A stretch of DNA of 64,000 nt, taken from assembly GCF_964204645.1 (NCBI RefSeq), contig NC_134027.1, forward strand, positions 22,618,485 to 22,682,484. The letters are read 5' to 3'. The notes under the pieces are model-generated. The model saw only the letters and a list, made by a program, of their open reading frames with translations, was not told where the DNA came from and ran no database searches. Numbering within the stretch: the first letter of the stretch is position 1; each line of letters opens with the position of its first letter. Of the stretch, positions 4,271 through 59,289 are shown piece by piece. This DNA comes from Tubulanus polymorphus (Eukaryota > Nemertea > Palaeonemertea > Tubulaniformes > Tubulanidae). A program made the translations under genes and the position numbers.

Positions 4271-4453
4271 GAATGAAACACAACCGTAATGCACTGGCTC
4301 TAACTTATTAATTTGTAAATCAAACCCGGACAATGCGGCGGACTGATGAGTTGTGTCGCCGTGTATATATATTGCCAGTATTGCCGGAAAACGCTTATGT
4401 AAAAGGAATTGATATATCCACTTAGTGAGGTTATACGAATTGTATACAATCAC

Positions 4454-5749: not shown

Positions 5750-6163
5750 TTATCCCCATGTTTGGGTGCTACTCCAATTCCAACCTCTGCGCAATCTGCT
5801 CCTTACTCTGTCCTGTTCTTCAGCGACCGCGGCATGTGTCAAGACCGACACAAAGATGACGCAAAACAGAAGCGCGAATGTAATCAGTTGACCTGAAAGA
5901 AATTGAAAGAACGTTAAAAACATTTTTTTTTCCAAATTATATTATATGAAATCAAAAAAAACTTAGAAAAAATAGTGAAGGATAAAAGCTAATAAAATAT
6001 GGTATTCATATCCGATTTATGAAGCTGACATAGTACGAAGCCTTATACCCTAGGAGACACGTACGTACGTCTGATGACGGTTATGCTACGTACTATAACA
6101 ATACATTCGTATACTGACGACATAACTTATACGCACATATATGATTATATACTTACTCAACAT
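5750..6163 (-). CDS. Small secreted Trp-rich amidated peptide precursor, gene 1
   Basis: A two-exon coding region, join(6157-6163, 5750-5892) on the minus strand, giving 49 residues. The ATG sits in a 14-base microexon (6157-6170, preceded by ttttttcag and followed by gtaagt). Exon 2 starts at 5892 after tttctttcag, and the stop is at 5750. Signal peptide: residues 1 to about 26, with a good cleavage motif AVA/EE. Then come acidic EEQD, the basic stretch RVRSRLRR (31-38) and the tail GWNWSSTQTWG. The final Gly before the stop would amidate the last Trp, and RR at 37-38 is a possible dibasic cleavage site. Two paralogues (11643-11967, 19560-19883) share signal, spacer and RxRLRR, but the tail differs: this copy has no Lys and reads GWNW where the others read WGNW. 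I recognise no known family; an antimicrobial peptide or a W...W-amide neuropeptide are the two readings. Confidence 0.8.
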
Positions 6164-6547
6164 TCTAGGTCTGAAAAAATACATTTGAAAAGCTCATATT
6201 TTTTGTAATCATCTGAATGTAGTTCTCCCGATAAGAGCGAAAATTCCATTGGGCTGACAACAATTTACAAACCGATTCTGTATTTCAAAGCATGGTCAAA
6301 ATTCTAGCATTGCCATAAGACTGATACCATCATTGATAGATAAAACACTGTCAGGAAAGTAGCGCTTTGAAATTAAGAGTAATATTCCTGTATTTCGCAT
6401 CCTCTCGAATACTCTAATCTGTAGATTTACCGATGCGAGATTGAATGAGTCAGTGTGGGTAAAGATCATTTATTTTGGATGGGTACATTGTCAACGCGAG
6501 AAAAAACCGTAAACGCTGTTTAGCGGCTATACTTATTTTTACTTACT

Positions 6548-6960
6548 TTTTTCTGATGCAGACTATATAATATCCCGATGTTAAGTGTTTCACTCGTCTC
6601 AGCATTTAGGGTAAAGGATGAGACTGGACTCAATTTGTCCATGCCAGTATAAAAAATGTTCGCACCAGGAATGAATGGGCCTATAGTGGCCTATCGGTTT
6701 GTGACAAGCTACGTATTCGATTCGAATGGAGGAGAGCAAAATATCTTGTAAAGGTTCCTATAGTTCAGACCAACTACTTTGCGGCTTCATGTTTTTCTAA
6801 ATTTTCCATACCTTTCCTGATGTTGACTAGTTCCACGACGGCTCGTCTCCTCGAGTGTGTTTTCGTGTAAGGGAATACGCTTAATTTATATACTGCCACA
6901 GGTGAACACGCGTATGTACCAAGCACTTACCACTGCCGTTTATTATTTATTCATGCGACG
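6548..6960 (-). promoter_or_regulatory. Untranslated exon 1 and upstream region of peptide gene 1
   Basis: Read on the minus strand, 'agtctgcatcagaaaaaa' ends at a splice donor gtaagt (exon end 6547). It lies just after a TATATAG motif and a 'gagacgagt' block. Genes A (10085-10218) and B (18050-18195) have the same order of blocks: 'aagtgcttggtacatac', 'gagacgagt', 'atagtccgcatcagaagaag', gtaagt. The conservation marks a shared promoter and 5' untranslated exon. Intron 1 is 376 bases here (6171-6546) but about 1.4 kb in A and B. The exact transcription start cannot be read. Confidence 0.55.
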
Positions 6961-7090
6961 ATGATGAGCGAGTGAAAGTCCATTTGAAACCAACTTCACC
7001 GAACCGAAAATCAATCGATGGTGAGCTGAAAAGCGATGGAGGCTAAAAACAAGTGAAGAACTTAATTTGTATAGCTTTATGTATAGCAGA

Positions 7091-7203
7091 AACTGTAATA
7101 AATTTGCAATTGCAACTACCTTTTAATGATATCAAAAATATACATATAGTTATATTTTCAATATCATAAAAAGGGAGTTTGCAATTGCAAATTTATTACA
7201 GTT
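7091..7203. mobile_element. Short perfect-arm hairpin element
   Basis: The left arm 'aactgtaataaatttgcaat' and the right arm 'attgcaaatttattacagtt' are reverse complements, extending over about 40 bases per arm around an AT-rich loop. Typical of a MITE; no coding content. Confidence 0.7.
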
Positions 7204-7470
7204 AGGCCTATATAATGTTATTGCCAAAACCGGGATTTTAGGCCATTGGTTGATCTATTGCGTAGGTCTATATCTGAGTCAGATGTCTGGCTCATATAGT
7301 ATATAGTAGTATATTCATTTTTCATTACTCATACATACAATGTGATATTTCGACAGGTTTTAAGTGCAATGTATGCGTAAGTGTGCTCGAATACTAATCA
7401 CATCTTCTTATCAATGAAATTAATATTGGGGATAATCATCCCTGTTTCAAGATATGAAATTTTATAATTC

Positions 7471-8058
7471 ATTCATATATGAATTATTCTAAATAAGGTA
7501 ATACATGGGAGATAATCTTGTTATGACATTTGCTGAGGGGATTTGAATAGTCATATGGGATATTTGCATTAATGTAAAAAGCGGATGACGTTCAACCTTC
7601 AGTCGGCAAGTGACTGGAATGATAAGGCGATTATAAAGGATAAGGGATTAATCTCAGTGGGAGATCCATTTGTTTCAGACCGGTTTTGTACGAGCGCCTA
7701 TTCGCGCAAAAAAATCAACCGTTTCATCTAGCCTGTTCTTGATGTTAGCGTCTAAGCGTAACGTCATAGTGTGGTTGTATATATACATTAAAGTGTTGCT
7801 ATTATCAGACTACCTGCGTTGTTGCTTTGTGTTACACAAACAATACATAGAAGTTATGTAGATAAACGTGTATTGATGTGACGTGCGTATCCACGTAGGG
7901 AAACCTAAATATGGTTCGGCCAGTACAAACGTGTTTTTACAATAATGTGAAGTGTGTAGGTACGTAAACACTCCATACATGGGTCGGTGGAACGTTTGAA
8001 CGTACGAACCATGTGTGGTGACGGGCCTGCAAACGTTACTAAACAGTAAACGATATCA
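7471..8058. repeat. Dispersed repeat, copy 2 (pair with 1601-2032)
   Basis: Same orientation as the first copy and nearly identical to it, except for an extra segment of about 160 bases near 7650-7810. That segment contains 'cgtctaagcgtaacgtcata', which resembles the inner part of the terminal repeat of the foldback element at 13597-15719. The extra segment may therefore be a fragment of that element family. Confidence 0.7.
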
Positions 8059-8277
8059 AATGGAAGAGCAAGTCTTTGAGAGGGAAAGGAAAAGAGAAGG
8101 TCTTTAGAAATAGGTTATACCCGGCTGAGAAAAATAAAGATGATTATATAGACTCAAGAAGTCGTTCTAGTTGTTTTCACAAAAGAGAATTAAAAGCGGG
8201 TGAGAATGTACGTACCTACAACGCTTATGAGAAAGTATATACACCAATAAACCGACACCGCTGACATCTTTTGACAA

Positions 8278-8545
8278 TTTGACTCTAAATCCAGTTCTGC
8301 ACTTGTGTGGGTTTGGTTTTGACTCCGAATCCAGTTCTTCGTTGTGTGGGTTTGGTTTGACTGCACTTGTGTGGGTTTAACTCTGAACCCAGTTCTACCT
8401 TTGTGTTGGTTTTATTTGACTGTGGATCTCAATTCAACAGTTGTGAGGGTTCGATTTGACTCTGGGCCGGTCAATATAGTAAGGGCCCCGCAGTGTAGCT
8501 TTTGATTTGGAATTATGTCCAATGTTGTTCTGTGGGTTCATCTTG
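8278..8545 (+). repeat. Dispersed minisatellite, copy 2
   Basis: Five or six degenerate units with consensus near 'ccagttctgcacttgtgtgggtttgg'. Related arrays lie at 395-605 (inverted) and 54600-54900. Noncoding. Confidence 0.6.
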
Positions 8546-10084
8546 ACTCTGGATGCAAATTATGACCTCAGGCGTAAATATCATATGAAATCATTCGCAT
8601 GTCCGAAGCTTTCTGCGGGAGTAACATGACGCAAGTCGTAGCCATGTGGCCAGTAAGGATCCACCAGAGTCTGTTTATACGTCCAGTCTTCAGCACTTTG
8701 GTTACTTTTTTTGCGTGCACTAATTTATCATCTAAACAATACACTCTTACATACAATGAATAAATTATCGCATTCAGTAGCAAGATTCGGGTTAGTCGAT
8801 GACCTGAGACCGCTACCAGAGATTCTAGTGACAAGCCAATTTTTGATTGAGCAGGCAAAACTTTTCGACAGTCTGGTGGCACCAATTCCATTGTACAGTT
8901 GTGAAAATTGGATAGTTGGGAAATTGTGAAGATTGGAAAATTGCGTCCCATTAAACGCCTTCTGAATTTCAAAAAGATGCCTTCAATATTGATTTAGCAT
9001 TTGAAAAAGATGACCACTGCAGAAACCGTGTATCTCTGTGCTCTATGTGTTTCACGTCGAGGAACAATGGCTGTACTAGGTGAGCTTGGCAATATCCACT
9101 CAGAAGACTCTTGAAATTCTGGCATACTGGCATACCACAAATAGGGAAAACTAGTATACCATTCTATGCAAGCAACCTGTTGGCATCCTAGATCATTCGC
9201 AATATCTTTTACCCGAACGAAACATACATTACAAGAGAGATTTAAACATTTTGGCACAAATAGATATCCAAATCGCCTCAAAAGTAGACTGCTACACAAT
9301 TCTAAATCCTGAATTTACCATTGCGCCATTCTTGGTGGGTTTTACGCTACCAAAACAATATAGAACCAAAATCTGCAAATTTCGTATAGGTAATCATTGT
9401 CTATACCGAGGAAGATACTGAAGAAGATAAACTAACAACACACCATGAGAGAATAGATTGTGCCAATCCTGTAATTCCATTTGAAAATGAGTTTCATTTT
9501 GTAAAGAGTGCTTAGGACAAAATTAGATATGATTTGAACAGAGCTGTAAGTTACATACCCAGATGCTCCAAATTGTGACTACCAAGCAAAATTCCAAATC
9601 CTAGACTTACTGATACAAACCTATACCTAAAGGTTTTGAAATTCTTAACTCTAACTCGACCAGACAGGGTGTATTTATAAAAATAAAGAGATGTTTGAAT
9701 TGAATTGTGAAGCGCATACTTGAATTGTTTAAACCTCTACTCTAGCTACGTGTATATTGTGAATCTAGTGAGAAAATGGAGGTAGGTCTTCCTGCGTATA
9801 TTCAAACTTGTCTACACTCCTGCTGTAAACACGAAATAATGTTTTTCAAAAACCGGCAATTAGCGTGTAGCCTATACGTATTGTTTCTGGCATCCTCCCT
9901 ATAGGCAGGGAAACGAGCACGATGGCGTTTGCATTGTGCATATTGTACCAGCTGTATTCCCATCAACAGAATTGCAGCTCGCTGAATATTGTTCGAGGTG
10001 TCAAATTGGATGTTTCTCACTCTTCATCGTCAAATGAACAAATAAAAAAACCAACCTGTAAGTGCTTGGTACATACACTCGTTC

Positions 10085-10218
10085 AATACTAGCATCAATG
10101 CTGGCAACTACATATATCAAGTATATCCAGTCCCATCCTGCATCCTAAACCGGGAACACGCTGGAGACGAGTAAACCCACACAACATCGTGAAACTATAT
10201 AGTCCGCATCAGAAGAAG
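10085..10218 (+). promoter_or_regulatory. Promoter region and untranslated exon 1 of peptide gene A
   Basis: A block conserved with gene 1 (minus strand, about 6548-6700) and gene B (18060-18195). It contains 'gagacgagtaaac' and 'actatatagtccgcatcag', then the donor aag/gtaagt, so exon 1 ends at 10218. The intron runs to the microexon at 11636. The transcription start is not resolved: the TATATAG motif lies too close to the donor to be a simple TATA box for this exon. Confidence 0.5.
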
Positions 10219-10498
10219 GTAAGTACAGGAAATAAGTACAGTTCATGTAGCGCTAACGGCATATTTAGTAGAATTAAAACTATTGATATATTAGGTTCAA
10301 CAGAATGGGAATACGTGAATATTTCATTTCAGTCCGCAACATAACTTTTTCGACAGTATTTTTTTTTGATCGGATATCTATTATATCTGATAGGAAGTGT
10401 ATATTTTGTCAGAGCGGCATTATTTTAGTAAACGCTATTTTGCCAATGGCTATACATCATAAGAATAACTGATAAAATATGACTATAAAATCATTATA

Positions 10499-10618
10499 TT
10501 GGGTTTAGGGTTAGGGTTTCAATAGGGTTAGGGTCTAGAGGGTCCAGAGTGTTAGGGTAAGTGTCAGAATGAGGTTTAGGGTCTGCTTTTTACCCCTAGG
10601 GATAGGGTTAGGGTAAGG
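10499..10618 (+). repeat. Telomere-like TTAGGG tract, copy A
   Basis: Degenerate interstitial repeats of ttaggg ('gggtttagggttagggtttc', several more units) inside intron 1 of peptide gene A. A shorter homologous tract is at 18468-18535 in unit B, so it predates the duplication. Confidence 0.7.
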
Positions 10619-10653
10619 TGAGACTACATGTAGTGAAAATTTACTGTTTCCAG

Positions 10654-10697
10654 TGAGCTCGATGGTTTAGTGGAAAGACGTTAGACTATCTGTTCAC
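10654..10697 (+). repeat. tRNA-derived SINE head, partial (unit A)
   Basis: 'gatggtttagtggaaagacg' resembles a Pol III A box within a tRNA-like head. The unit B copy (18550-18606) retains 'agactagcaatctgcctctg', which is partly deleted here. No good B box (GGTTCGA) remains, so it is a remnant. Confidence 0.4.
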
Positions 10698-10963
10698 ACT
10701 TTCCTTGAATTTTTTACGTCGCGCACCTCAGTACGCATGCGCGGCGTCGATTAGCCAATCAGAACGCGCCATTGACAAAATAGCCTTGACATGAATAATG
10801 CGCGCATTGGCAAAATATCACCTTCCTATTTGGTAACGCAGCTCTATAGATGACGAGGTATGACTTAAACATAAGAAGCTTTTTCTGGAAATTATAGCCC
10901 CCATCAAGCATACTGATGTCATTTTTAATTGGACTGCATCTCACGTATATAGTATAGACATTA

Positions 10964-11207
10964 TTGGGACGTGTTTCTGATTCCTTTTTATCAACTATTT
11001 GGAGCTTTTTATTGGATTTTTTGGATTGGAAGAAACCTAAAGGCCGACCACAGTCCACCTGGTTGACGATAATCCGTGAAGACCTAGCCTTTGTGGATAT
11101 AGAACTTGATTTTAAATTAACGCCAAGCGAAATATTAACTTTTTGAAGGAACTGACTGTAGGCCGCGATAATTGGGGTCCCTTGTACATCACATCGTGAC
11201 GCAGCGG
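10964..11207 (+). pseudogene. Non-LTR retrotransposon 3' end remnant (unit A)
   Basis: The plus-strand translation contains GRPQSTWLTIIREDLAF and, after a frameshift near 11146, DNWG-type residues. This is the usual C-terminal tail of LINE reverse transcriptase proteins (GRP-x-x-TW ... D-x-W-x-x-LV). The homologous remnant at 18910-19116 in unit B is intact over this stretch. It lies in intron 1 of peptide gene A and is too short to encode an enzyme. Confidence 0.65.
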
Positions 11208-11642
11208 CGTTGGTGATGTCATAGAAGAAAGATTGGATTGTTTCAAGAAAATAGGAGGGCGAAGAGGAAAAATAAACCATTTTTTATAAAAGGCGTTTTT
11301 AAGATAAAATGCGTTTATGGAAGGGAGCATGGAGAAATGAATTAAGAAACGGGTATCTTCCACGTAAACCTCGAAAGGACTGCAGAGACAGATAAAAAAG
11401 AGTTGAGATTGTGACGAATTTGATTCAAAAGATTGGAGAATTCAATGAAGAAAGAAAACTATCTTCTAGCAAATCACTAGATTGAAAATTAGAGTGGTTG
11501 TAACTAAAAAACAATTGTTTCTTTATTTGATTATTAATGCAGAATTTCAGGAGGCGGATCCGTGCTCCAAGCAATTAGCCTAGCGTATAACTAAGACGAT
11601 AATCATATGTATATTTCTAAATTCATTTTTTTCAGACCCAAA

Positions 11643-11967
11643 ATGTTGAGTAAGTATCTAATCTAAGTACAGGTATCTAATAGGGTAAGAATCGCAAATT
11701 GCGTTAATTCTACTCTTCACAGTTCTTTCGTTTGTTCCAAATTCAATTTAGCTGTTATCTGGTATATGTTTTTTTTTTACTTTTGTTTATTTTCTTATCC
11801 TTTAATTTGTTTAAGGTCAACTGATTATATTGGCGCTTCTGTTTTGCGCTATCTTTGCGTCGGTTATGACTGTGACTGAAGCCGCTGAAGAACAGGAAAA
11901 AGTTAGAAGCAGATTGCGTAGATGGGGCAATTGGAGCCCGCCGAAAATATTTAAAAAATGGGGATAA
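11643..11967 (+). CDS. Small secreted Trp-rich cationic amidated peptide precursor, gene A
   Basis: Join(11643-11649, 11816-11967), 52 residues. The ATG lies in a 14-base microexon, ACCCAAAATGTTGA (11636-11649), bounded by tttttttcag and gtaagt; exon 2 follows ttgtttaag. Signal peptide: residues 1 to about 25 (hydrophobic core QLIILALLFCAIFASV, cut likely TEA/AEEQ). Then come the acidic spacer, KVRSRLRR (31-38) and the tail WGNWSPPKIFKKWG. The final Gly predicts amidation of Trp51. The mature part is strongly basic (Arg33, 35, 37, 38; Lys46, 49, 50) with three Trp, as expected of a membrane-active host-defence peptide. If cut at RR it would be a 13-residue amide. The microexon, signal and RxRLRR are shared with the copies at 5750-6163 and 19560-19883. 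Function is inferred from composition only. Confidence 0.8.
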
Positions 11968-13463
11968 GGCCGACATAATCATATCGACTATACGCCGATA
12001 TCTATTAGAGATCATTCTGAATTGTTTTGGTTGAAATATCAGCTGTCATTTTGTCTCTACGAAACTACAATTATTTTGTTTGTGTTATGTTAACAGGATG
12101 TTGGCCGTTCAAAAATATTGTTTGCAGTAACGCCGAGGAAACGAAGTAAAACGCCCTAATTCTTTCGGTGCTTTCTTTTCCAAGATAAATCGAAATCGTT
12201 TCGCTAGAAAGAATGTTAGACACAATTTATTGAGGTTACGTAAAATGTTTCTAATTCCAAGTCGAAGATTAAGACCAAAAACTCGATTTCTCCGAAGAAA
12301 AGCGGACGTGGTTCAATTTTGTCGTCTTGTATCGTGAAGGAAAATCAAGGGATGGCCGGATGACGTTGTAGCCTATTGTAACACCGTACCTTTTCGACGT
12401 ATACCACCACCAACATTCAAACGCTGAATTGACAAGATCGGCTCTTCGTTCATTTGACATGTCATTCTAGCCAGTCTGTGTTTTTTTTTTAGCAAAGAAT
12501 CCATCATACAAATGTACATTCAAGCACCAATGCCATCTTCAGGAATCAAGTGGTTAATCAGCAACCAACAAAGTACATGTACCATACTCCAAGTCAGGAC
12601 AAGTCAGCGTTTAGAATATATTATCTATCAGTATCGTTTAATGCTTCCAGCATCATTCTCACCACTGCAATTCCAGCGGCGGATCCAGGGGATACACAGG
12701 GTGGTCGTGCACCTTCCCCTCGAGAGATTGACCTTTTCGTGTGAAAGAAGAAAAAACAACCATTGATGTCCAATATTCATTGCCCTTTATTCCATTTATT
12801 CATATATTTCATGATTGACCAATCACAGAGCAAATTTTTTACACAGATACTGATCAAGGTCACCACTCTAGGGACGGTTGCTCAAAAGTAGACTAAATTC
12901 TTATCAATTCATACGAGCTTTTAACTGAAATTAAATCTACTTTTCAGCAATCGGCACCTGAACTCGTACCCAACATCAAATCGAATATTCATCAAGCGAT
13001 ATAAAACTTTCGGTCTAGATTCCCGGGAAAGTTAAAAAGACAACCGATTCAACTTCGCCTCTCATCGGTTTAAAAGAATTCTACTACGACAAAGTAAAGA
13101 TACATACATCGCAACTAAAGTCTAAATAAAAGTCGATTTGAAAAAAACCCAGTTTTCTTATCGTATGAAACCGGGCTCGGTATGATATAAAAAGTCCCTC
13201 CATAGTTTGTATATAGTATCGTCTAGGTGATTATACATACGTGGTATATACGTCTCTAATATTGAGTCAACAGTTTCTCTAAAAAGTAATATACAAAAAA
13301 AATGAACATCAGATTGTTTCTAACTACGAAACGACTAAATACAACATAAAATGGGTTCATATATTCGCTGAACGTGCGTAAAATGCAACGTATTATTTTT
13401 TGATTTTTCTCGACATATTACACGACTAATACGTACATAGATACAAAATAGAATACAAAATCC
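11968..13463. other. Noncoding duplicated block downstream of peptide gene A
   Basis: This aligns with unit B in two parts: 11968-12650 with 19884-20478, and 12764-13560 with 22934-23740. Short frames here are broken by indels between the copies, so they are not conserved genes. A fragment of a 'ccagcggcggatccagggga' repeat lies at 12665-12725. Confidence 0.55.
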
Positions 13464-13469
13464 CAGCAG

Positions 13470-13515
<46 letters not shown>
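13464..13515 (+). repeat. CAG/AGC microsatellite
   Basis: About 17 triplets of agc. The homologous position in unit B (23652-23670) has only about five or six, partly ctg-interrupted. The tract has therefore changed length since the duplication. Confidence 0.9.
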
Positions 13516-13596
13516 TCTCAACTTCCGTGTTCAGAGCATTTTATCAATCCGCTGGCTGGAAGCACCTCCGATAGCCCGGGCTGTTAGGTTGCCGCA

Positions 13597-15719
13597 TATG
13601 GGCGGCCATTCCCGCCAAAAATCAGCGTTTCGTCTATTTGTCTGTACTTTGTCAAAATGTCATAGTTCACCGCCAAAATGTGTAAGCGTAACGTCAAATT
13701 GTGTAATGCGGCTAAATAACACAGGGGGCAACACTGTACGGACAGTATTTCGCGGTATTTTTCTCGCTTTGCGATCATCTCAAGGTCGTCTCATTGAAAT
13801 AATTTTGCGAGTATCAAATCGACAAATCGTATCATATTCCCTAACCCATGGAATACCTCAAGGGCCATACGACTTACGAGTTACGTTTTACGACTTACGA
13901 GTTACTAATACATTTCCTACAATACGTTACGACTTACGTTTTACGACTTGCGTTTTACGAAATACACGTTTTTCACTAATTGGCTTCGGATATCCGAAGC
14001 GCGCTAAATTCAAAGAACGGGTTTCAAAATGAAGTCGAATTGTCATTTCAAACAGCATAATAAGAGTAATTTATTGTACATAGTGAATCAATCTCGACTG
14101 CAGTGGGCTATTACAGGGCAGAAAATCTGCGCGTTGGCCATCTGCTGTGCGAACCTTCTCAAAATCTATTAAATGCTTTCACACTGACTGATGACTGTCC
14201 CGTTACGTGCACGATGATTTTAATAGACGATATTTCAATATGTAGATCTTAGCTGGAAATGATTTTAATAATTAGAACAAGATTCATCAATATAGAAAAA
14301 ATGTATTTATTTTTTGAAAACACTAGGCCGCATACAGCCATCCATCATCGTTACAGTTATTCGTCTAATAATTACACCCACACAGTGAAATGCCTACCAC
14401 GTGGCCACTGTCCTTGAACTCTTGCGAACCGAAACTCCAACACTTAACTCGTAAATCGTAACTCGTAATTCGTTGAACGTATTTAAGTTGTAATTCGTAA
14501 CTCATAAAACGGAAGTCGTAACGAATATTCAAGGAAATGTATAAGTAACTCGTAAAACGTAACTCGTAAGTCGTAAAACGTAACTCGTAAGTCGTATGGC
14601 CCTTGAGGTATTCCATACTATTAACCCCAATAAAATGAATTTATTATTACTTTTATTAGTTAACTCGGAACTCATGAACTCAAGACGTCGTCTCAGGTAT
14701 GGAGGCCCTGTATGGAAGCCCTGAGACGACACCTTGGGTTCATGAGTTCCCCAGTTCATAACTTCCAGAGTTTATGATATTTCGAGTTTATTTGGGCATG
14801 TACAACACTATGAAATTATGCGACATAAAGAATCCTATTATAAGGATGTTAAATCCGATTACGTCATGAATTAACTAAAAAATGATGTCCCGCATCAACC
14901 AAGACTGGTTGACTGTGCCCAATTCTGCACTGGCAGTCATATGAAGTCGACCGGCAACCAGTCTATCATCAGACATCAGCTTTCTTGATGGTTTATAGAA
15001 AATAAATAGATATTTAAAAATTTCTCATAACGAGCGTTTGTTATCTTTTTCATCATTAAAACCCGAGCAGATTCATCGAGAGTCACCGGTTATTCGGAGT
15101 CACCCTTCTCTCTAGCCCGAGCACAGAAAATCCGAGCTACCTACCAGAGGAGGAACGGAAGCGCCCTTCAACATACCATTGATCGCTGGTTATTCAGTAT
15201 CGTCTAAGCCTGAGACGCGGGTCTTTGATAGAGCATCGTGTTTACATTCGACGTTTCGGTATCGCAGGCTTTTTTCATTAGACGAACTCATGAACTTGAG
15301 AACTCAGGAAGTTATGAACTTGGAACTCATGAACTCAAGATGTCATCTCAGGGCTTCCATAGGTTTACGGCAAAGTATTTACTTCCGCTATTTTACCGTA
15401 CATTATTACTATATATTATAGTATTAACTAACTAAAGTAACAATAAAATCATTTTTTTGGGTTTAGGTAATATGATACGATTTGTCGATTTGATACGAGC
15501 AAAATTATTTCAATAAAACGATCTTGATATGATCGCAATGCGAGAAAAATACCGCAAAATACTGTCCGTACAGTTTCGCCCCCCCCCCCCCTGTGTTATT
15601 TAGCCGCATTACACAATTTGACGTTACGCTAACACATTTTGACGGTGTACTATGACATTTTGTCAAAGTACAGACAAATAGACGAAACGCTGATTTTTGG
15701 CGGGAATGGCCGCCCATAG
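13597..15719. mobile_element. 2.1 kb foldback element with about 250-base terminal inverted repeats
   Basis: The left end 'tatgggcggccattcccgcc' and the reverse complement of the right end, 'ctatgggcggccattcccgc', begin inverted repeats of about 252 bases (13597-13848 and 15466-15719). A 5-base direct repeat, ccgca, flanks it at 13592-13596 and 15720-15724. Unit B shows a single ccgca at the same place (after cccggg near 23741): an empty site. Inside are a second foldback (13848-14616) and arrays of about 10-base units. No transposase is visible, so it is non-autonomous. Confidence 0.85.
13848..14616. mobile_element. Nested foldback with short-unit tandem arrays
   Basis: The ends 'atggaatacctcaagggcca' and 'tggcccttgaggtattccat' are exact inverted repeats. 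Each leads into an array of about 10-12 base units related to 'acgacttacgagttacg' (13870-13970 and, inverted, 14440-14600). It lies within the larger foldback. The frames called here are artefacts of the array. Confidence 0.75.
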
Positions 15720-18059
15720 CCGCACACATGCTACGGGTTCCTCTTTTGATACAATATGGACATATAAACTAGATACGTCCATGGATACATCGCAAATCTT
15801 AAGCCGTCAATTTTGTCGAACATCAAAATCATTCAACCATTCCATTCTATCTTTTTTCTTCAAATGAATTAAGTATCGTTGCCATGAATTTTGGATTGTG
15901 TATTTTGGCAGCTGTGTCAAGCTGGAACTGATATCCCAGTTGCTAAAAAGTTGGTTAAAGTAACCGTTTGGTAAGTAAAGTACGCACAGTAAAATTACAG
16001 TTTTGTCAGCTCCTCAGAAATTGAGCAACTGACCCTCACTCGTCATATAACGTCGGCCCAAGTCTACACCATCGATGCAAAAAAGGAAAAAAACTATATC
16101 ATATACAAGTGAGGCCTCTATATAACAAGACTCTAGTCAATTCGTCAATTATTCTTTTGACACTTTTCACTGAGGTTAGACATGACATATCATTTGTATC
16201 AGATTTAAATATTATGCTATAATGGTACATACCGGAACTACAAAATTCATCTAGACGTAATGCATTTTAGGTCAGAACTTTCGTACTATTTTTCCACTGA
16301 CTAATCTCAATTGCAAAACTATCAGCTACAAGCCTCGCTAGTTAGCAGATACTCTGACAAGCAGTTTCGTGTTAAATTTGAACTGATGCAGGCGTCAATC
16401 TGCTTCTGGACTGCCTGGATTTCACCAGGGACGTTTTCAATTGAAAATGATCTACAAACACCAGACATTCATTGTATTTCGTACTGGCCTCAAACTTCGG
16501 AACAATGTAAACATTTCAATACAAGTCGCCATTTTTGTTTATGTAGTATATTTGGCACTTTCGTGTTATTGATCGACTTTTTTCGAATCAAGGCATAGAC
16601 CCTTCCAGAAGAGCTGGCTGCCGTCATAAATCCCTGATGGCATCGTGAGCCTCGGCCATGTTCTTCCCTCGCTGGGATTTTGTGTCTGGGAAATTAAACA
16701 CACAACTGTGGAAATGGGTGCAATTTAACCTAATCAACTGTAGAGCCGGGTCCAGAGTCAACAAAACTGAAAAAACTATGCGAAAACCGACCATAACTGC
16801 ACCCCATAAGTATGCGCAAAACTTTTCGACAGTATGGTGGCACCAATTCCATTGTACAGTTGTGAAAATTGGATAGTTGGGAAATTGTGAAGATTGGAAA
16901 ATTACGTCCCATTAAACGCCTTCTGAATTTCAAAAAGATGTCTTCAATATTGAATTAGCATTTGAAAAAGATGACCACAGCAGAAACCGTGTATCTCTGT
17001 GCTCTGTGTGTTTCACGTCGAGGAACAATGGCTGTACTAGGTGAACTTGGCAATATCCACTCAGAAGACTCTTGAAATCCTGGCATACTGGCATACCAAA
17101 AACAGGAAAAACTAGTATACCATTCTATGCAAGAGTTAATCCACTCCAACTATAGTTGGTATAGCTTCCTCACAAAACCTGTTGGTATCCTAAATCATTC
17201 GCAATATCTTTTACCCGAACGAAACATACATTACAAGAGAGATTTAAACATTTTGGCACAAATAGATATCTAATTCGCCTCAAAAGTAGACTGCTATACA
17301 ATTCTAAATCCTGAATTTACCATTGCGCCATTCTTGATGGGGTTTACGCTACCAAAACAATATAGAATCAAAATCTGCAAATTTCGTATAGGTAATCATT
17401 TTTTATACTGAGGAAGATAAACTTACAGCACACCATGAGAGAATAGATTGTGCCAATCCTGTAATTCCATTTGAAAATGAGTTTCATTTGTAATAGAGTG
17501 CTTAGGACAAAATTATATATGATTTGAACAGAGCTGTTAGTTACATGCCCAGATGCTCCAAATTGGGACGACCAAGCAAAATTCAAAATCCTAGACTTAC
17601 TGATAAAAACCTATACCTAAAGGTTTTGAAATTCTTAACTCTAACTCGACCTGGTAGGGTGTATTTATTACAATAAAGAGATTATTGAATTGAATTGTGA
17701 AGCGCATACTTGATTTGTTTAAACATCTACTCTAGCTACGTGTATATTGTGAATCTAGTGAGAAAATGGAGGTAGGTCTTCCTGCGTATATTCAAACTTG
17801 TCTACACTCCTGCTGTAAACACGAAATAATGTTTTTCAAAAACCAGCAATTAGCGTGTAGCCTATACGCATTGTTTCTGGCATCCTCCCAATAGGCAGGC
17901 ATTCGAACACGTTGGCGTTTGCATAACGCTTATTGTACCAGCTGTATTCCCATCAACAGAATTGCAGCTCGCTGAATATTGTTCGAGGTGTCAAATTGGC
18001 TGTTTCGCACTCTTCATCGTCACATGAACAAATAGAAAACCAACCTATAAGTGCGCTTG

Positions 18060-18195
18060 GCACACACATGCATTGATGCTGGCAACTACATATATCAAGT
18101 ATATCAGTCCCATCCTGCACCCTTAACCGGGAACACGCTGGAGACGAGTAAACCCACACAACATCGTGAAACTTTAAAGTCCGCATCAGAAGAAG
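18060..18195 (+). promoter_or_regulatory. Promoter region and untranslated exon 1 of peptide gene B
   Basis: Homologous to 10085-10218; exon 1 ends at 18195 before gtaagt. The 'agtccgcatcagaagaag' block and the upstream 'gagacgagtaaac' are identical to A. Confidence 0.5.
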
Positions 18196-18467
18196 GTAAG
18201 TGGAAATAAGTACAGTTTATGTAGCGCTAACGGCATTTTTAGTAGAATCAAAGCTTCTGATATATTAGGTTCAACAGAATAGGAATATGTGAATATTTCT
18301 TTCAGTCCGCAACATAACTTTTCCGACAGTTTTTTCTTTTTTTGATCGGATGCCTATTATATAGTGTATATTTTGCCAATGCGGCATTATTTTAGTAAAC
18401 GCTATTTTGCCAATGGCTATATTTAATAAGATATACTAATAAAATATAACAATAAAATCATTATATC

Positions 18468-18535
18468 GGGTTTAGGGTAAGGGTTTCGAAAGGGTTAGGG
18501 TCTAGAGGGTCCTGAGGGTTAGGATTAGAGAACCT
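18468..18535 (+). repeat. Telomere-like TTAGGG tract, copy B
   Basis: A shorter, degenerate counterpart of 10499-10618 inside intron 1 of peptide gene B. Confidence 0.65.
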
Positions 18536-18549
18536 ACTGATGGTTTCCA

Positions 18550-18606
18550 GTGAGCTCGATGGTTTAGTGGAAAGACGTTAGACTAGCAATCTGCCTCTGT
18601 TCACAC
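18550..18606 (+). repeat. tRNA-derived SINE head (unit B)
   Basis: 'gatggtttagtggaaagacg' followed by 'ttagactagcaatctgcctc' gives a tRNA-like head with A box and anticodon-loop-like region. The B box is degenerate. It is more complete than the unit A copy. Confidence 0.45.
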
Positions 18607-18909
18607 TTACCTTTTAAATTTTTAAGTCGCACATCTCAGTACGCATGCGCGGCGTCAATTAGCCAATCAGAACGCGCCATTGGCAAAATAGCGTTAACAT
18701 GAATAATGCCGCATTGGCAAAATATCACCTGCCTATTTGGTAACGCAGCTCTATAGATGACGTAGTATGACTTAAACATAATACAGAAGCTTTTTCTGGA
18801 AATGATAGCCCCCATCAAGCATACTGATGTCATTTTTAATTGGACTGCATCTCACGTATATAGTATAGACATTATTGGGACGTGTTTCTGATTCCTTTTT
18901 ATCAACTAT

Positions 18910-19116
18910 TTGGAGCTTTTATTTGATTTTTTGAATTGGAAGAAACCCCAAGGCCGACCACAGTCCACCTGGTTGACGATAATCTGTGAAGACCTAGCCT
19001 TTGTGGATATAGAACTTGATTTTAAATTAACGCCAAGCGAAACATTAACTTTCCTGAAGGAACTAACTGTAGACCGCGATAATTGGGGGTCACTTGTACA
19101 TCACATCGTGACGTAG
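18910..19116 (+). pseudogene. Non-LTR retrotransposon 3' end remnant (unit B)
   Basis: An open frame translating to GRPQSTWLTIICEDLAF ... LTVDRDNWGSLVHHIVT then stop. This is the C-terminal tail typical of LINE reverse transcriptases. The catalytic domains are absent. It is homologous to the frameshifted copy at 10964-11207. Confidence 0.7.
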
Positions 19117-19559
19117 CGGCGTTGGTGATGTCATAGAAGAAAGATTGGATTGTTTCAAGAAAATAGGAGAGCGAAGAACAAAAATGAAAAATAAAACATT
19201 TTTATAAAAGGCGTTTTTAAGATAAAATGCGTTTATGGAAGGGAGCATGGAGAAATGAAAACAAGAAACGGGTATCTTCCACATAAATGTCGAAAGGACT
19301 GCAGAAACAGATAAAAAAGAGTTGAGATTGTGACGTATTTGATTCAAAAGATTGGAGAATTAATGAAGAAAGAAAACTAACTTCGAGCAAATCACTAGAT
19401 TGAAAATTAGAGTGGTCGTAACTAAAAACAATTGTTTCTTTATTTGATTATTTATGCAGAATTTCAGGAGGCGGATCCGTGCTCCAAGCAATTAGCCTAG
19501 CGTATAACTAAGGCGATAATCATATGTATATTTCTAAATCCATTTTTTTCAGACCCAAA

Positions 19560-19883
19560 ATGTTGAGTAAGTATCTAATCTAAGTACAGGTATCTAATTG
19601 GGTAAGAATCGTAAATTGCTCGTAATTCTGCTCTTCACACTTCTTTCGTTTGTTCCAAATTCAATTTAGCTGTTATCTGGAATATGTTTTTTTTACTTTT
19701 GTTTATTTTATTTTCTTTTAATTTGTTTAAGGTCAACTGATTATATTGGCGCTTCTGTTTTGCGCTATCTTTGCGTCGGTCTTGACTGTGGCTGAAGCCG
19801 CTGAAGAACAGGACAAAGTTAGAAGCAGATTGCGTAGATGGGGCAATTGGAGCCCGCCGAAAGTATTTAACTCATGGGGATAA
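19560..19883 (+). CDS. Small secreted Trp-rich amidated peptide precursor, gene B
   Basis: Join(19560-19566, 19732-19883), 52 residues. The microexon at 19553-19566 is identical to gene A (ACCCAAAATGTTGA) with the same acceptor and gtaagt donor; exon 2 follows tttaag. The protein matches gene A in signal peptide, spacer and KVRSRLRR, and the tail is WGNWSPPKVFNSWG. Compared with gene A, the tail replaces the KK before the last Trp with NS, lowering its charge. The terminal Gly again predicts an amidated C-terminus. The promoter, untranslated exon and intron contents match gene A because both lie in the segmental duplication. No frameshift or stop is present, so both copies look functional. 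Confidence 0.8.
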
Positions 19884-20488
19884 GGCCGACATAATCATAT
19901 CGACTATACGCCGATATCTATTAGAGATCATTCTGAATTGTTTTGGTTAAAATATCAGCTGTCATTTTGTCTCTACAAAACTACAATTATTTTGTTTGTG
20001 TTATGTTAACAGGATGTTGGCCGTTCAAAAATATTGTTTGCTGTAATGCCGAGGAAACGAAGTAAAACGCCCTAATTCTTTCGGTGCTTTCTTTTCCAAG
20101 ATAAATCGAAATCGTTTCTCTAGAAAGAATGTTAGACACAATTTATTGAGGTTACGTAAAATGTTCCTAATTCCAAGTCGAAGATTAAGACCAAAAACTC
20201 GATTTTTCCGAAGAAAATCAAGGAATGGCCGGTTCGACGTATACCACCACCAAGATTCAAACGCTGAATTGACAAGATCGGCTCTTCGTTCATTTGACAT
20301 GTCATTCTAGCCAGTCTTAATTTTTTAGCAAAGAATCCATCATACAAATGTACATTCAAGCCCCAATGCCATCTTCAGGAATCAAGTGATTAATCAGCAA
20401 CCAACCAAGTACCATACTCCAATGACAAGTCAGCGTTTAGAATATATTATCTATCAGTATTGTTTAACGCTTCCAGCATCTTTCCACT

Positions 20489-21882
20489 TTTTTTTAGTAC
20501 AAACTAATTTCATTAAACAAGTCAATGATATACAAAATAAATACATGCTAAGGTCCAGAGGACATTACAAGCAATTACAATTATAATTGAAGTGACATTT
20601 GACGGTGACCAAAAATTAATAAATGCACGTAAACTGATAATACACTAAAGGATGATAATATTAATAGTAATGATAGTAGCAATGAGTTGTCACAATAAAA
20701 GTAATAATAATGATAAATAATAACGCAAAATGATAATAGATAATAGTAAATGATAATAATAATGATAGTAATAATAATAATAATGATAATGATGATTATC
20801 GTCATCAGTTAGAGATTCTTTGGTTTCTAGAAATGAATTTAGCCACAAGACAGATTACTGTCGAGTTTAAATCATAGTTATAAATGGAATTTCCAAAAAG
20901 TAGGAATTCGAATTTATTCAACACGTTTAATCTATTGAAATACGGAAGTATACTTCCGTATAGAAGTAGGAAATGTGTTGTCAGTAGGTGCAGTCAGGAT
21001 CACTTACACCAACGAAATTATGTGAATAGAAATGAGATCTCAGGAAGAGGTCTACACGCAGACGATTTAAGCAGATTTCTTCATTTCGATTGAGGTTGTT
21101 TATTATGGTTGAACTAAGAACATTGGAGTGGTATTTATTAAAGCAGGTTCTAGATTTGAAAAGGGAAAATGAATCGCAGTTTTGAAGCTCAGGTGTAACA
21201 TTATTCCATTATTCCATAAGTTGAACAATGGGTGATCGCCTCATAAATGAAGAATAAGATGCTGGGATTCTAAAAGGTCGCTGCGTTCTAAGAGCACGAG
21301 GTTGGTTGCTGGCCACGTTATGGAAATTTATGAAGATTGAATTTACATATGGTGGGACAAATCGGTTTTTTACTTTAAACATATACAGCAATTGACGCTC
21401 TTTACGCCTGGCGGCTAGAGTTTGCCAGTTCAAAATTTGCAGGACCTTATTAGTGTTTGAGCCGTGGATACAACCGGAGACAAGGATCGCAGCTCTGTAG
21501 TGAATCCTCTCCAGTTTGTTTAGATTAGAAGTAGAGGCCCCCTGGTAGATGATATCACAGTATTCAAAGTGAGGAGTTATAAAAGATTTATAGATTAATT
21601 CTAGATGACAAGATCTAAGTTTTCGGCTTAGCAATTTCAGTGGATTTAGGAGTTTTTGGGTTTTAGTAACCAGACGTACGATGTGTTCATGAAAATTAAG
21701 GTTTTGATCAAGAATAAGGCCTAGGTGTTTGTGAGATTGTTTTGTAGGGATTATTTCCCCGTCGAAGGTGAGATTAGTGTAGTTTGCAGTACCACGTTTC
21801 GTAAAGTTGATATTGCAACATTTGGAAGGTTTGAATTGGAGCCGCCAGATTTTGGCCCAAGATTCAATCTCATCTTCTTTCT
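20489..21882 (-). mobile_element. 5'-truncated non-LTR retrotransposon (LINE) insertion
   Basis: Inserted in unit B only. The 10-base target duplication tctttccact flanks it at 20479-20488 and 21883-21892. Read on the minus strand, it has a reverse-transcriptase fragment, then a 3' tail with (taa)n/(gat) simple repeats, and ends in poly(A) (t-run at about 20489-20496 on the plus strand). Unit A at about 12655 lacks it. Confidence 0.85.
21209..21882 (-). pseudogene. Reverse transcriptase fragment (jockey/CR1-like)
   Basis: The minus-strand frame is open from the element's 5' edge. It contains W-x-x-x-W-x-LQF-x-PSKC, HLGLILDQNLNFHEHI, the region with YKSFITPHFEYCDIIYQG, then RRKERQLLYMFKVKNRF. 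These are post-YADD segments of a LINE reverse transcriptase (thumb and following region). The catalytic YADD and the endonuclease domain are missing through 5' truncation, so it is not functional. Confidence 0.85.
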
Positions 21883-21892
21883 TCTTTCCACT

Positions 21893-22930
21893 GCAATTCC
21901 AGCGGCGGATCCAGGGGATACACAGGGTGCACGTGCACCTTCCCCTCGAGGGCTGACCTTTTCGTGTGAAAGAAGAAAAAGCAAAATTTCGCCTAAGTTT
22001 TGTCGTTGTCGTTTACCGACGCTTTACTCGGCATAACCGATGTTCATTGCTGCGTTTGGTTAAATGACTGGATTGGTTCCGGGCCAGACGTACTCATATC
22101 GTGCCTAGAACGCGTCTAGTGCTGGAACAAACAATTTTGGGGAGGACCTTCAGACCCCTATCCCAATTTGTGCACCCCTCCCTGAAATCCTGGATCCGCG
22201 GCTGAATTCTCCACCAGTTGAGCTCGTTCTGACTTCAATTGTATAAAAACCTATAATCATTAACAATCTCATTAACTTCATATTCTCAGAAAGCGAAAGA
22301 GGTGTACGCATTGCGAGCTAGAAACTGTTCGTACCACTTCCAGTCGTATGATCTCCATTTTGACCGGTCTTTGAAGTTGGTGACGTACTACCTCGTCCAG
22401 CGTTATGTTCCCTGCGAGTTCTACTTTCCGTTTCCCATCTCAAAACCGTACAGAGAGTGGCGGGGTAGGTCTCTTAAATCAAGCGTACGGTACCTACGTA
22501 CTTTATTCACGACCCCGCATGTGGTTTCGTTTGAGAGACTTAAACTAGTTTTATATAAACTATGCACGTCTTTTATAAACAACGATGGCCGCAAGTGTCG
22601 CCATCTATATTCTGACCGGAACAGTGTGGGCTGCAGATGTGTCCGGGGTAGTTTGTATAAACGATATATAACAGAAAATCCACCGAAGCGTATTCGAAAG
22701 AACTGGATTCCGTCTGAACTGACGAAAGGACGGACGGGGACTTAAGACGTGTCGGCAAAATGCATTCTATCTGCTGATGCTCCATTGTAAATGTTCTCGT
22801 CCTCGCTTGCAAGGGTTTGGTTGTCTGCTCGTAAATTGCTTCTATATCCTGCATAGTCCTCGATCGGGTTCAGGGTCAGCAGTCCGCTTGAAAAAAAACA
22901 CGAATATCGATTTCATTTCTTCGCGAACAA
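21893..22930. other. Short inverted-repeat element and unit-B-specific segment
   Basis: 21893-22208 begins 'gcaattccagcggcggatcc' and ends 'ggatccgcggctgaattc', which are imperfect inverted termini of a MITE-like element. Unit A keeps only its left part (12665-12725). The rest up to 22930 is absent from A. The 147-residue frame at 22302-22745 has no motif I recognise and I do not call it a gene. Confidence 0.45.
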
Positions 22931-23651
22931 AAAACAACCATTGATATCCGATATTTATTGCCCTTTATTTCATTTATTCGTATATTTCATGATTGACCAA
23001 ACACAGAGCAAATTTTTTACACAGATACTGATCAAGGTCACCACTCGTAGGGACGGTTGCTCAAAAGTAAACTAAATTCTTATCAATTCAGACGAGCTTT
23101 TAACTGAAATTAAATCTACTTTTCAGCAATCGGCACCTGAACTCGTAACCAACATCAAATCGAATATTCATCAAACGATATAAAACTTTCGGTCTAGATT
23201 CCCGGGAAAGTTAAAAAGACAACCGATTCAACTTCGCCTCTCATCGGTTTAAAAGAATTCTACTACGACAAAGTAAAGATACATACATAGCAACTAAAGT
23301 CTAAATAAAAGTCGATTTGAAAAAAAAAAACAGTTTTCTTATCGTGTGAAACCGGGCTCGGTATGATATAAAAAGTCCCTCCATAGTTTGTATATAGTAT
23401 CGTCTAGGTGATTATACATACGTGGTATATACGTCTCTAATATTGTGTCTACAGTTTCTCTAAAAAGTAATATACAAAAAAAAAAATGAACAACATCAGA
23501 TTGTTTCTAACTACGAAACGACTACATACAACATAAAATAGGTTCATATATTCGCTGAACGCGCGTAAAATGCAACATATTATTTTTTTTACTTTTCTCG
23601 ACATATTACACGACTAATACGTACATAGATACAAAATAGAATACAAAATCC

Positions 23652-25655: not shown

Positions 25656-26095
25656 TGTATTTCTTACTGGCCTCAAACTTCGGAACAATGTAAACATTTC
25701 AATACAAGTTGCCATTTTTGTTTATGTAATATATTTGGCACTTTCGTGTTATCGATCGACTTTTTTCGAGTCAAGTCATAGACCCTCCCAGAAGAGCTGG
25801 CTGCCGTCATAAATCCCCGACGGCATCGTGAGCCTCGGCCATGTTCTTCCCTCGCAAGGATTTGAACCTGATGGCATCGCGAGACTCTACCATGTTCTTC
25901 CCTCACGGAGACCCGAACCTGGCCGCATGCTTCCCATACAGAGGATTTTGAACCTGATTGTGGCAGTCTCAGGATACCATTGGATTCAAATACGACATCA
26001 TTAAATTGAAAAAAAAAATGGTAACAGAATCGATGTCATCGCGGTAACAAGGTCACGCGACGGCTGTTCTGAAAGGGTCTATACAGTACTGACAT

Positions 26096-59061: not shown

Positions 59062-59289
59062 CTACGAATAGAAGAACATTCGTAAAATAATATAAAGACG
59101 CGTCAATTTTTCATTTTCGATACGAAATTCTAATTCGAACATTTTAGATTGCTATATTTTTTTTCAAATGTGGAAAAGTGAATTTGTTGGAATTATTAGC
59201 AAAAAACAGCACCGAAGGAATGTGTCAGATTCGCGTGATGTCATAGGGCTCAATTCCGGGAGATGGGATTTTTTGGCAGTCTCACGATG

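What the first reader, a model, noticed from the sequence alone, without database searches (positions are those of the whole stretch)
5750..19883. Three-copy family of tiny Trp-rich, probably amidated secreted peptides
Three short precursors (49, 52 and 52 residues) at 5750-6163, 11643-11967 and 19560-19883 share a signal peptide, an acidic EEQ spacer and R-x-R-L-R-R. They end in tails GWNWSSTQTWG, WGNWSPPKIFKKWG and WGNWSPPKVFNSWG. The sequence directly shows intact frames, splice sites and a Trp-Gly-stop end in all three. That C-terminal Gly is an amidation signal is established knowledge. That these are antimicrobial or signalling peptides is inference from charge and Trp content. I know of no family with this pattern.
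Basis: partly seen in the sequence, partly recalled or inferred. Interest (0 to 1): 0.88.

Follow-up and report, generated by a model that had tools for sequence, protein, structure and literature searches.

The report
Seven-gene family of tiny amidated peptides
An animal genome carries a small family of genes that each seem to make one very short, tryptophan-rich, secreted peptide; the design is familiar from defence and signalling peptides, but no known family matched in the searches available, and whether the peptides are made or what they do is untested.

Summary
Three intact genes lie at the stated places: A on the minus strand, B and C on plus. The same genome has four more: three lie 2-33 kb left of the window on the same chromosome and one on another, plus two decayed fragments. 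Each encodes a 49-55 residue precursor: a signal peptide, a short EEQD-type spacer, a dibasic site (R-x-R-R in 6 of 7, KR in 1) and a 10-16 residue tail with 2-4 Trp; six of seven tails end Gly-stop. Coding begins in a 7-base segment (least certain in G) followed by a phase-1 intron. In 7 of 11 compared pairs exon 2 aligns and the intron does not. Residue conservation drops most sharply at the dibasic site. Best reading: secreted prepropeptides cut by a furin-like protease and amidated, most likely defence or surface effectors; signalling is the main rival. I found no relative in the protein, Pfam, NCBIfam, PDB or paper searches, which are weak for short animal peptides. No expression data exist here. 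New family of a known kind.

The parts
6157..6163 (-). gene A, first coding segment ATGTTGA (reads 6163 to 6157), preceded by a TTTTTTCAG acceptor and followed by GTAAGT
5750..5892 (-). gene A, main coding exon; precursor MLSQLITFALLFCVIFVSVLTHAAVAEEQDRVRSRLRRGWNWSSTQTWG
5753..5785 (-). gene A, segment for the predicted mature tail GWNWSSTQTW plus the C-terminal Gly
   Evidence: position counted; cleavage inferred
6532..6555 (-). possible donor of a 5' untranslated exon of gene A (CAGAAAAAAGTAAGT, similar in D and F by eye)
   Evidence: suggestive only
11643..11649 (+). gene B, first coding segment ATGTTGA with GTAAGT donor
11816..11967 (+). gene B, main coding exon; precursor MLSQLIILALLFCAIFASVMTVTEAAEEQEKVRSRLRRWGNWSPPKIFKKWG
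11911..11922 (+). gene B, RLRR furin-type (R-x-R-R) site
   Evidence: counted
11923..11964 (+). gene B, segment for the predicted mature tail WGNWSPPKIFKKW plus the C-terminal Gly
   Evidence: counted; core compared
19560..19566 (+). gene C, first coding segment ATGTTGA with GTAAGT donor
19732..19883 (+). gene C, main coding exon; precursor MLSQLIILALLFCAIFASVLTVAEAAEEQDKVRSRLRRWGNWSPPKVFNSWG
19839..19880 (+). gene C, segment for the predicted mature tail WGNWSPPKVFNSW plus the C-terminal Gly
   Evidence: counted
8855..13302 (.). tandem unit holding gene B (left copies of repeat families D2-D5, D9, D13, D16-D19)
   Evidence: 20 of 43 repeat families were shown
16816..23483 (.). tandem unit holding gene C (right copies of the same repeat families; spacing 7.9-8.0 kb, 10.2 kb at its right end)

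Best explanation
A small tandem gene family in a bilaterian animal encodes one short secreted peptide per precursor. Shown by sequence: a hydrophobic N-terminus with a small-residue cleavage motif, a short EEQD-type spacer rich in charged residues, a dibasic site (R-x-R-R in 6 of 7, KR in 1), and a 10-16 residue Trp-containing tail, with Gly-stop in 6 of 7. Inferred: signal peptidase removes the leader, a furin/PC-type convertase cuts after the dibasic site, and peptidylglycine alpha-amidating monooxygenase (PAM) converts the terminal Gly to an amide. Released peptides would be GWNWSSTQTW-amide (A), WGNWSPPKIFKKW-amide (B), WGNWSPPKVFNSW-amide (C) and their kin. Most likely function, by inference: extracellular effectors of the host-defence or surface-secretion type. 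The leader is kept and the tail diversifies by tandem duplication, as in myticalins or frog-skin peptides. The confidence given is for this whole reading; for secreted, convertase-cut and amidated alone I would say 0.85.
For: Seven intact genes in the genome. In 7 of 11 compared pairs the intron, beyond the bases beside the splice sites, does not align at E<=1e-3 while exon 2 does; in 4 of those 7 the first coding segment aligns too. The best change point in column conservation is after column 38, the second residue of the dibasic site (one residue of G was removed to keep register, and only the first 46 columns were counted). Leader plus spacer: dN/dS is below 1 in 13 of 15 pairs among the six C3 genes; the two pairs above 1 (A/E, D/E) have low dS. 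Tail lengths differ only by whole codons, and 6 of 7 end GGA-TAA. A tail core, PP(K/R)I(F/W)K(K/E)WG, is shared by B on C3, relic 1 on C3 and G on C10; B and relic 1 differ at 3 codons, all synonymous. Duplication plus decay resembles effector families: two relics sit among the intact genes. Myticalin papers describe a conserved leader, a hypervariable mature part and prevalent pseudogenes (passages). The own genome has exon matches to PF03712 over the cut-off (21), the copper monooxygenase family that holds the amidating enzyme; related enzymes share it (recalled), so this shows only that the machinery is plausible.
Against: No transcript or mass data. Recent pairs show no purifying selection: whole-CDS dN 0.058 / dS 0.030 for B/C and 0.053 / 0.064 for A/D, from few changes. 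Tails of D and A have net charge 0 and +1, unlike cationic antimicrobial peptides. No GGGRNWYYCC site upstream of any of the 7 genes, though few would be expected. Gene G lacks a terminal Gly, its site is KR, not R-x-R-R, and its first coding segment, about 1 kb away, was picked from a loose pattern scan that also listed other candidates in A and C.
Confidence: 0.5

Rival explanations
1. Signalling peptides (neuropeptide, hormone or pheromone): the tails are Trp-amide ligands for rhodopsin-class receptors, with one peptide per precursor.
For: Dibasic cut plus amidation is the prohormone route. A and D tails (GW[N/D]WSSTQTW-amide) fit the x-W-x6-7-W pattern given for myoinhibitory peptides in PMC3890597 (passages). 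A GPCR whose closest solved relatives by sequence are galanin receptor 2 and cholecystokinin A receptor lies 1.3 kb downstream of A; similar ones lie downstream of D and F on the same strand.
Against: The W-x7-W-amide end fits only 2 of 7. Wamide precursors are described as repetitive (PMC7270403, passages); here there is one peptide per precursor. The adjacency means little, because the GPCR family is genome-wide (109 scored of 1,797 first-look candidates), and no GPCR copy matched within the 69.9 kb around G (best E 0.30).
Confidence: 0.28
2. The active product is the longer uncut peptide (spacer plus tail), an Arg/Trp-rich cationic amphipathic effector; RSRLRR belongs to the active molecule.
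For: RSRLRR is identical in 5 of 7 and adds four positive charges; Arg/Trp mixing is typical of Trp-rich antimicrobial peptides (recalled).
Against: The conservation break sits exactly after the dibasic pair. F and G change the motif (RSRSRR, RTHEKR) but keep a dibasic end.
Confidence: 0.1
3. Duplicated relics with no present function: the frames are intact by chance or by recency.
For: Recent pairs A/D and B/C evolve at near-neutral dN/dS; two decayed fragments show the family does decay; G has lost the terminal Gly.
Against: Five divergent lineages keep start, splice sites and frame, and coding blocks are conserved where introns are not.
Confidence: 0.1
4. Part of a noncoding dispersed repeat.
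For: Repeats are common in the surrounding DNA.
Against: Own-genome searches return only 7 copies of the gene, 2 of the relic and 3 of the B 3' part. The tool warns that DNA search skips very common words, but protein queries with B, F and G also added only two weak hits without a Trp tail.
Confidence: 0.02

Closest known systems
Myticalins of mussels (PMC5577615, PMC12294457; passages seen)
   Same: Clustered multigene family; conserved signal peptide, hypervariable short linear mature peptide, dibasic convertase site, frequent amidation signal, intron just before the ATG, phase-1 intron in the coding sequence, pseudogenes.
   Different: There the order is signal, mature peptide, dibasic site, anionic C-terminal extension; here it is signal, spacer, dibasic site, mature tail. 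Mature length there is 23-47 residues against 10-16. The coding intron lies after the mature part there and inside the leader here. The published signal consensus looks unlike this one (by eye; not aligned).
Frog skin peptide superfamily (PMC7070584; passages seen)
   Same: The same order: conserved signal peptide, acidic spacer, KR/RR site, variable short C-terminal peptide, some amidated; precursors as short as 44 residues.
   Different: Vertebrate lineage; none of the 7 precursors matches a Pfam family above cut-off, and a Pfam leader family for frog peptides exists (recalled). Presumably convergent.
Wamide neuropeptides: MIP, allatostatin-B, GLWamide (PMC7270403, PMC3890597; passages seen)
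   Same: C-terminal Trp-amide predicted in A, B, C and D; W-x7-W in A and D.
   Different: Repetitive precursors there; one peptide per precursor here; E and F end in Lys-amide and Pro-amide, and G in Val.
Short Trp-rich antimicrobial peptides such as indolicidin and tritrpticin (features recalled; only a search listing with abstract starts seen)
   Same: 10-16 residues, several Trp, often amidated, Pro in B, C, E, F and G.
   Different: Low or zero net charge in A and D; no sequence relation shown.
Hydra NDA-1 (PMC5614986; abstract and outline seen)
   Same: Shows that one secreted peptide can be both neuropeptide and antibacterial, so the two leading readings need not exclude each other.
   Different: Different animal; sequences not compared.

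Membership tests
Secreted, convertase-processed, amidated prepropeptide (generic) | N-terminal signal peptide | tested here: met
   best 15-residue mean hydropathy 2.79-3.04 and at least one (-3,-1)-rule site in 7 of 7; a rule, not SignalP.
Secreted, convertase-processed, amidated prepropeptide (generic) | Dibasic convertase site before the mature part | tested here: met
   RR in 6 of 7 (all R-x-R-R), KR in 1 of 7; conservation change point falls there.
Secreted, convertase-processed, amidated prepropeptide (generic) | C-terminal Gly as amide donor | tested here: met
   Gly-stop in 6 of 7; G ends GWV.
Secreted, convertase-processed, amidated prepropeptide (generic) | Amidating enzyme in the genome | tested here: inconclusive
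   21 exon matches to PF03712 at E<=0.001, all over the cut-off; the family also holds related copper monooxygenases (recalled), and no single gene was assigned as PAM.
Secreted, convertase-processed, amidated prepropeptide (generic) | Transcript and amidated peptide detected | not testable with these tools
   No RNA or mass data.
Wamide / MIP neuropeptides | Repetitive precursor with several Trp-amide peptides | tested here: not met
   one tail per precursor in 7 of 7.
Wamide / MIP neuropeptides | W-x6-7-W-amide end | tested here: not met
   fits A and D (2 of 7); B and C have W-x8-W; E, F and G do not end in Trp-Gly-stop.
Wamide / MIP neuropeptides | Activates the MIP receptor | not testable with these tools
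   Needs an assay.
Myticalins | Order signal, mature, dibasic, anionic C-terminal extension | tested here: not met
   against passages.
Myticalins | 5' untranslated exon ending just before the ATG exon, then a phase-1 coding intron | tested here: inconclusive
   Acceptor beside the ATG in 5 of 7 (A-E); coding intron after 7 bases, phase 1, but at another place in the protein.
Frog skin peptide superfamily | Homologous signal and acidic propiece | tested here: not met
   No Pfam family above cut-off for 7 of 7 precursors; that Pfam holds the frog leader family is recalled.
Cationic antimicrobial peptides | Clearly positive net charge of the mature peptide | tested here: inconclusive
   net 0 to +5; 5 of 7 are +2 or more.
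Cationic antimicrobial peptides | Antimicrobial activity | not testable with these tools
   Needs an assay.

The most novel reading that the evidence does not exclude
The family is a fast-evolving ligand set (pheromone-like or neuropeptide-like Trp-amides) that co-evolves with the very large expansion of single-exon, peptide-receptor-like GPCRs in the same genome, some of which lie beside the peptide genes in the same duplicated units.
Probability: 0.06. Interest if true: 0.75.

Novelty: new member of a known kind. Interest (0 to 1): 0.45.

Why it matters
If the peptides are made, they add an unknown family of very short, Trp-containing, amidated animal peptides whose genes are easily missed by annotation: a 7-base coding start and a 49-55 residue product. 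A tail core shared between two chromosomes, beside strongly diverged paralogues, gives a ready set of natural variants for testing what each part of the peptide does. The 10-16 residue products can be made synthetically and assayed at once.

Tried and rejected
Insect or hymenopteran origin (my first guess): the start of C10 is CCCTAA repeats, that is TTAGGG telomeres, not the TTAGG usual in insects (recalled). Only 1 of the 8 contig ends that I looked at shows it; the other 7 show other sequence. A let-7 match at 51.1 bits, just under the 53.5 cut-off, fits a bilaterian (recalled). Annelid haemoglobin linker PF16915 gave no match, but nothing rang in the controls either, so this is uninformative. 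COX1 (PF00115) gave no match, so there was no barcode. Two paper searches on assembly size and chromosome lengths found nothing relevant. The organism remains unidentified.

Ligand-receptor linkage: peptide genes A, D and F each lie upstream of a same-strand GPCR or GPCR fragment. I dropped it as evidence when the GPCR family proved genome-wide.

Weak hits. C6:3004980 (E 0.88) has a hydrophobic stretch and a KKR but no Trp tail; C10:3731481 (E 0.0995) holds two in-frame stops; a script hit of F on C10 near 4138600 (E 0.004) has no leader. None was counted; a very distant relative at C6 is not excluded. Kappa-B-like sites: none at GGGRNWYYCC (0.08 expected per gene), one shorter GGATTTTCC upstream of F (0.41 expected per gene). 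Pfam: nothing above cut-off for 7 of 7 (best sub-threshold E 0.0047, Trp_oprn_chp, G). NCBIfam: A and B only, nothing above cut-off. PDB: B only, one chain at E 1.1. Protein database: none (B alone, seven-row alignment, 98 candidates, none at E<=1). Peptide strings in papers: none of 6 strings in the held library. Rfam on the window: none. A SignalP-type predictor was not on hand. Structure prediction was not tried for peptides this short.


Full report
OBSERVATION. The three genes are real open reading arrangements at the stated places. Gene A is on the minus strand. Coding starts in a 7-base segment (ATGTTGA) followed by GTAAGT. A phase-1 intron of 165-264 bases leads to exon 2, which begins GTCAACTG after an AG. 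The precursors are 49 (A), 52 (B) and 52 (C) residues. A TTTTTCAG acceptor directly before the ATG in all three points to an upstream untranslated exon; a donor-like site in A (6532-6555) is suggestive only.

FAMILY SIZE. The window lies at C3:22618485-22682484 of a 267.8-Mb assembly in 77 contigs. DNA and protein queries with B, and protein queries with F and G, return the same seven intact exon-2 frames; A, C, D and E were not used as queries. The seven are A, B and C; D at C3:22585565 plus; E at C3:22591819 plus; F at C3:22616649 minus; and G at C10:4158304 minus. A pattern scan lists the ATGTTGA segment and donor in A-F, 174-273 bases upstream of the exon-2 frame; the same loose pattern also lists one other candidate each in A and C. 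For G it lists ATGATAC-GTAAGT 1,046 bases upstream, which I accept, but it is the least sure start. Two further places, C3:22593239-22593439 and C3:22602863-22603062, hold a piece related to the tail and what follows it. They have no leader and no Gly-stop end, and I read them as decayed copies. No other relic was found with that query, and the 3' part of B matched only B, C and E.

ANATOMY. The full precursors are A MLSQLITFALLFCVIFVSVLTHAAVAEEQDRVRSRLRR/GWNWSSTQTWG; D MLSQLITFALLFCVIFASVLTQAAVAERKDRVRSRLRR/GWDWSSTQTWG; B MLSQLIILALLFCAIFASVMTVTEAAEEQEKVRSRLRR/WGNWSPPKIFKKWG; C MLSQLIILALLFCAIFASVLTVAEAAEEQDKVRSRLRR/WGNWSPPKVFNSWG; E MLSQLIILALLFCTIFASVLAMAAAADEQDKVRSRLRR/GWLSRIWGPMKFTRKG; F MLSQLITLALLFGVIFASVLAVAETAEEQDKFRSRSRR/YWSWTRAWLPKPPG; G MIRQLVALLLLFCAIFASVLAVAAAYDEQDQVRRTHEKR/GWRIKPPRIWKEWGWV. 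The slash marks the predicted cut. Each has a strongly hydrophobic stretch and at least one site fitting the (-3,-1) rule. Six of seven carry R-x-R-R, the minimal furin pattern (established knowledge); G has KR. Six of seven end Gly-stop. The genome has 21 exon matches to PF03712, the copper monooxygenase family that includes the amidating enzyme and its relatives (membership recalled).

SELECTION. Among the 15 pairs of the six C3 genes, leader plus spacer gives dN/dS below 1 in 13. The two above 1 (A/E 1.14, D/E 2.08) have unusually low dS, perhaps from gene conversion. The two recent pairs are near neutral: whole-CDS dN 0.058 / dS 0.030 for B/C and 0.053 / 0.064 for A/D; the B/C tail has 4 nonsynonymous and 0 synonymous changes. 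So constraint is visible over long distances and not among recent copies. In blastn of the surroundings (3.8-6.5 kb each), 7 of 11 pairs (A/B, A/F, B/F, E/F, E/G, B/G, F/G) show no intron match at E<=1e-3, beyond the bases beside the splice sites, while exon 2 matches; in the first four of these the first coding segment matches too. B/E aligns through most of the intron, A/E has a 35-base intron match, and A/D and B/C align throughout. Further matches in the flanks, some long and over 90% identical, lie at other positions and I take them for shared repeats, overlapping window stretches or 3' sequence. Ten other pairs were not compared. The largest drop in column conservation falls after column 38, the second residue of the dibasic site. 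For that count I removed one residue of G to keep register and used the first 46 columns. Neutral decay without indels would leave five lineages intact with probability 1.4e-2 at 5%, 9.5e-4 at 8% and 4.2e-5 at 12% divergence per branch.

THE TAIL IS NOT RANDOM. B, relic 1 and G share PP(K/R)I(F/W)K(K/E)WG across two chromosomes. B and relic 1 differ in three codons of ten, all synonymous, where 18% of single changes would be; relic 2 differs from B in four, three of them nonsynonymous. C, A/D, E and F have departed from this core. The core looks ancestral and constrained for a time, with later diversification.

MECHANISM. The best-supported route is secretion, a furin-type cut after the dibasic site and amidation at the terminal Gly. 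Sequence supports all three steps; none was measured. What the peptides do is inference. A conserved leader, a diverging tail, tandem birth with decay and absence from the searched databases resemble effector families. The PMC5577615 and PMC12294457 passages describe the same picture for myticalins, and PMC7070584 passages describe the same part order for frog skin peptides. Against a classical antimicrobial peptide stands the low charge of A and D; there is also no positive sign of kappa-B control. A signalling role is the main rival: A and D fit x-W-x6-7-W, but the Wamide family is described by repetitive precursors, which is not met. PMC5614986 (abstract) shows that a Hydra neuropeptide can be antibacterial, so the two readings are not exclusive.

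NEIGHBOURS. A rhodopsin-class GPCR (3323-4456 minus; Pfam 7tm_1) lies just downstream of A, and its 94% twin lies downstream of D. A copy matching in two pieces lies downstream of F, and two more copies or partial copies and a short fragment lie in the cluster. By sequence its best solved relatives are galanin receptor 2 and the cholecystokinin A receptor. The family is genome-wide: 109 matches scored out of 1,797 first-look candidates, all but the two in this cluster 59-71% identical. Adjacency is therefore weak evidence, and no GPCR copy of this family matched around G.

NOVELTY. No protein relative was found, no Pfam match above cut-off for 7 of 7, no NCBIfam match above cut-off for the 2 tried and no PDB match better than E 1.1 for the 1 tried, and none of six peptide strings occurs in the held papers. 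The protein search needs shared 5-residue words, suits short animal peptides poorly, and holds an unknown share of animal proteins, so absence is not shown. I file it as a new family of a known kind.

Noticed in passing
window 3323-4456 (minus) and genome-wide: A single-exon rhodopsin-class GPCR belongs to a very large family in this genome: 109 matches scored of 1,797 first-look candidates, mostly 60-71% identical, a good part of them with in-frame stops. It looks like a lineage-specific chemoreceptor-type expansion.
   Followed up: partly
window 33405-34151 and 35999-36754 (minus); C10:4172059-4172778: Copies of a small-domain (MTS) methyltransferase family lie about 13.5 kb from gene C and about 13.6 kb from gene G on the other chromosome. 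The family has 26 matches in the genome (19 of at least about 180 residues), so finding one beside both peptide loci seems unlikely by chance, but it was noticed after the fact.
   Followed up: partly
C3:22593239-22593439 and C3:22602863-22603062 (plus): Two decayed pieces of the peptide gene end, one with an identical SPPKIFKKWG reading, in a unit 90% identical over 982 positions next to GPCR copies.
   Followed up: yes
window about 39800-59100 (minus): Exons of a laminin chain: Laminin_N at 58424-59110 and laminin EGF at 51730-52065 by Pfam; the frames between look laminin-like by eye, and resemblance to laminin beta is recalled.
   Followed up: no
C10 about 4176500-4185900: A run of open frames resembling a Polinton/Maverick-like element (integrase-like and packaging-ATPase-like frames, recognised by eye only) about 18-27 kb from gene G.
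   Followed up: no
genes A, D and E: Leader segments of A/D and E have unusually low dS (0.08-0.13) against normal dN, hinting at gene conversion between them.
   Followed up: no
C6:3004980-3005084 (plus): A weak hit (E 0.88) with a hydrophobic leader-like stretch followed by DTKIKDKEQHKKR but no Trp tail; possibly another small secreted peptide gene.
   Followed up: partly
window 59216-59592: Tandem 51-base units (five copies in register), also found inverted at 25816-25928.
   Followed up: no
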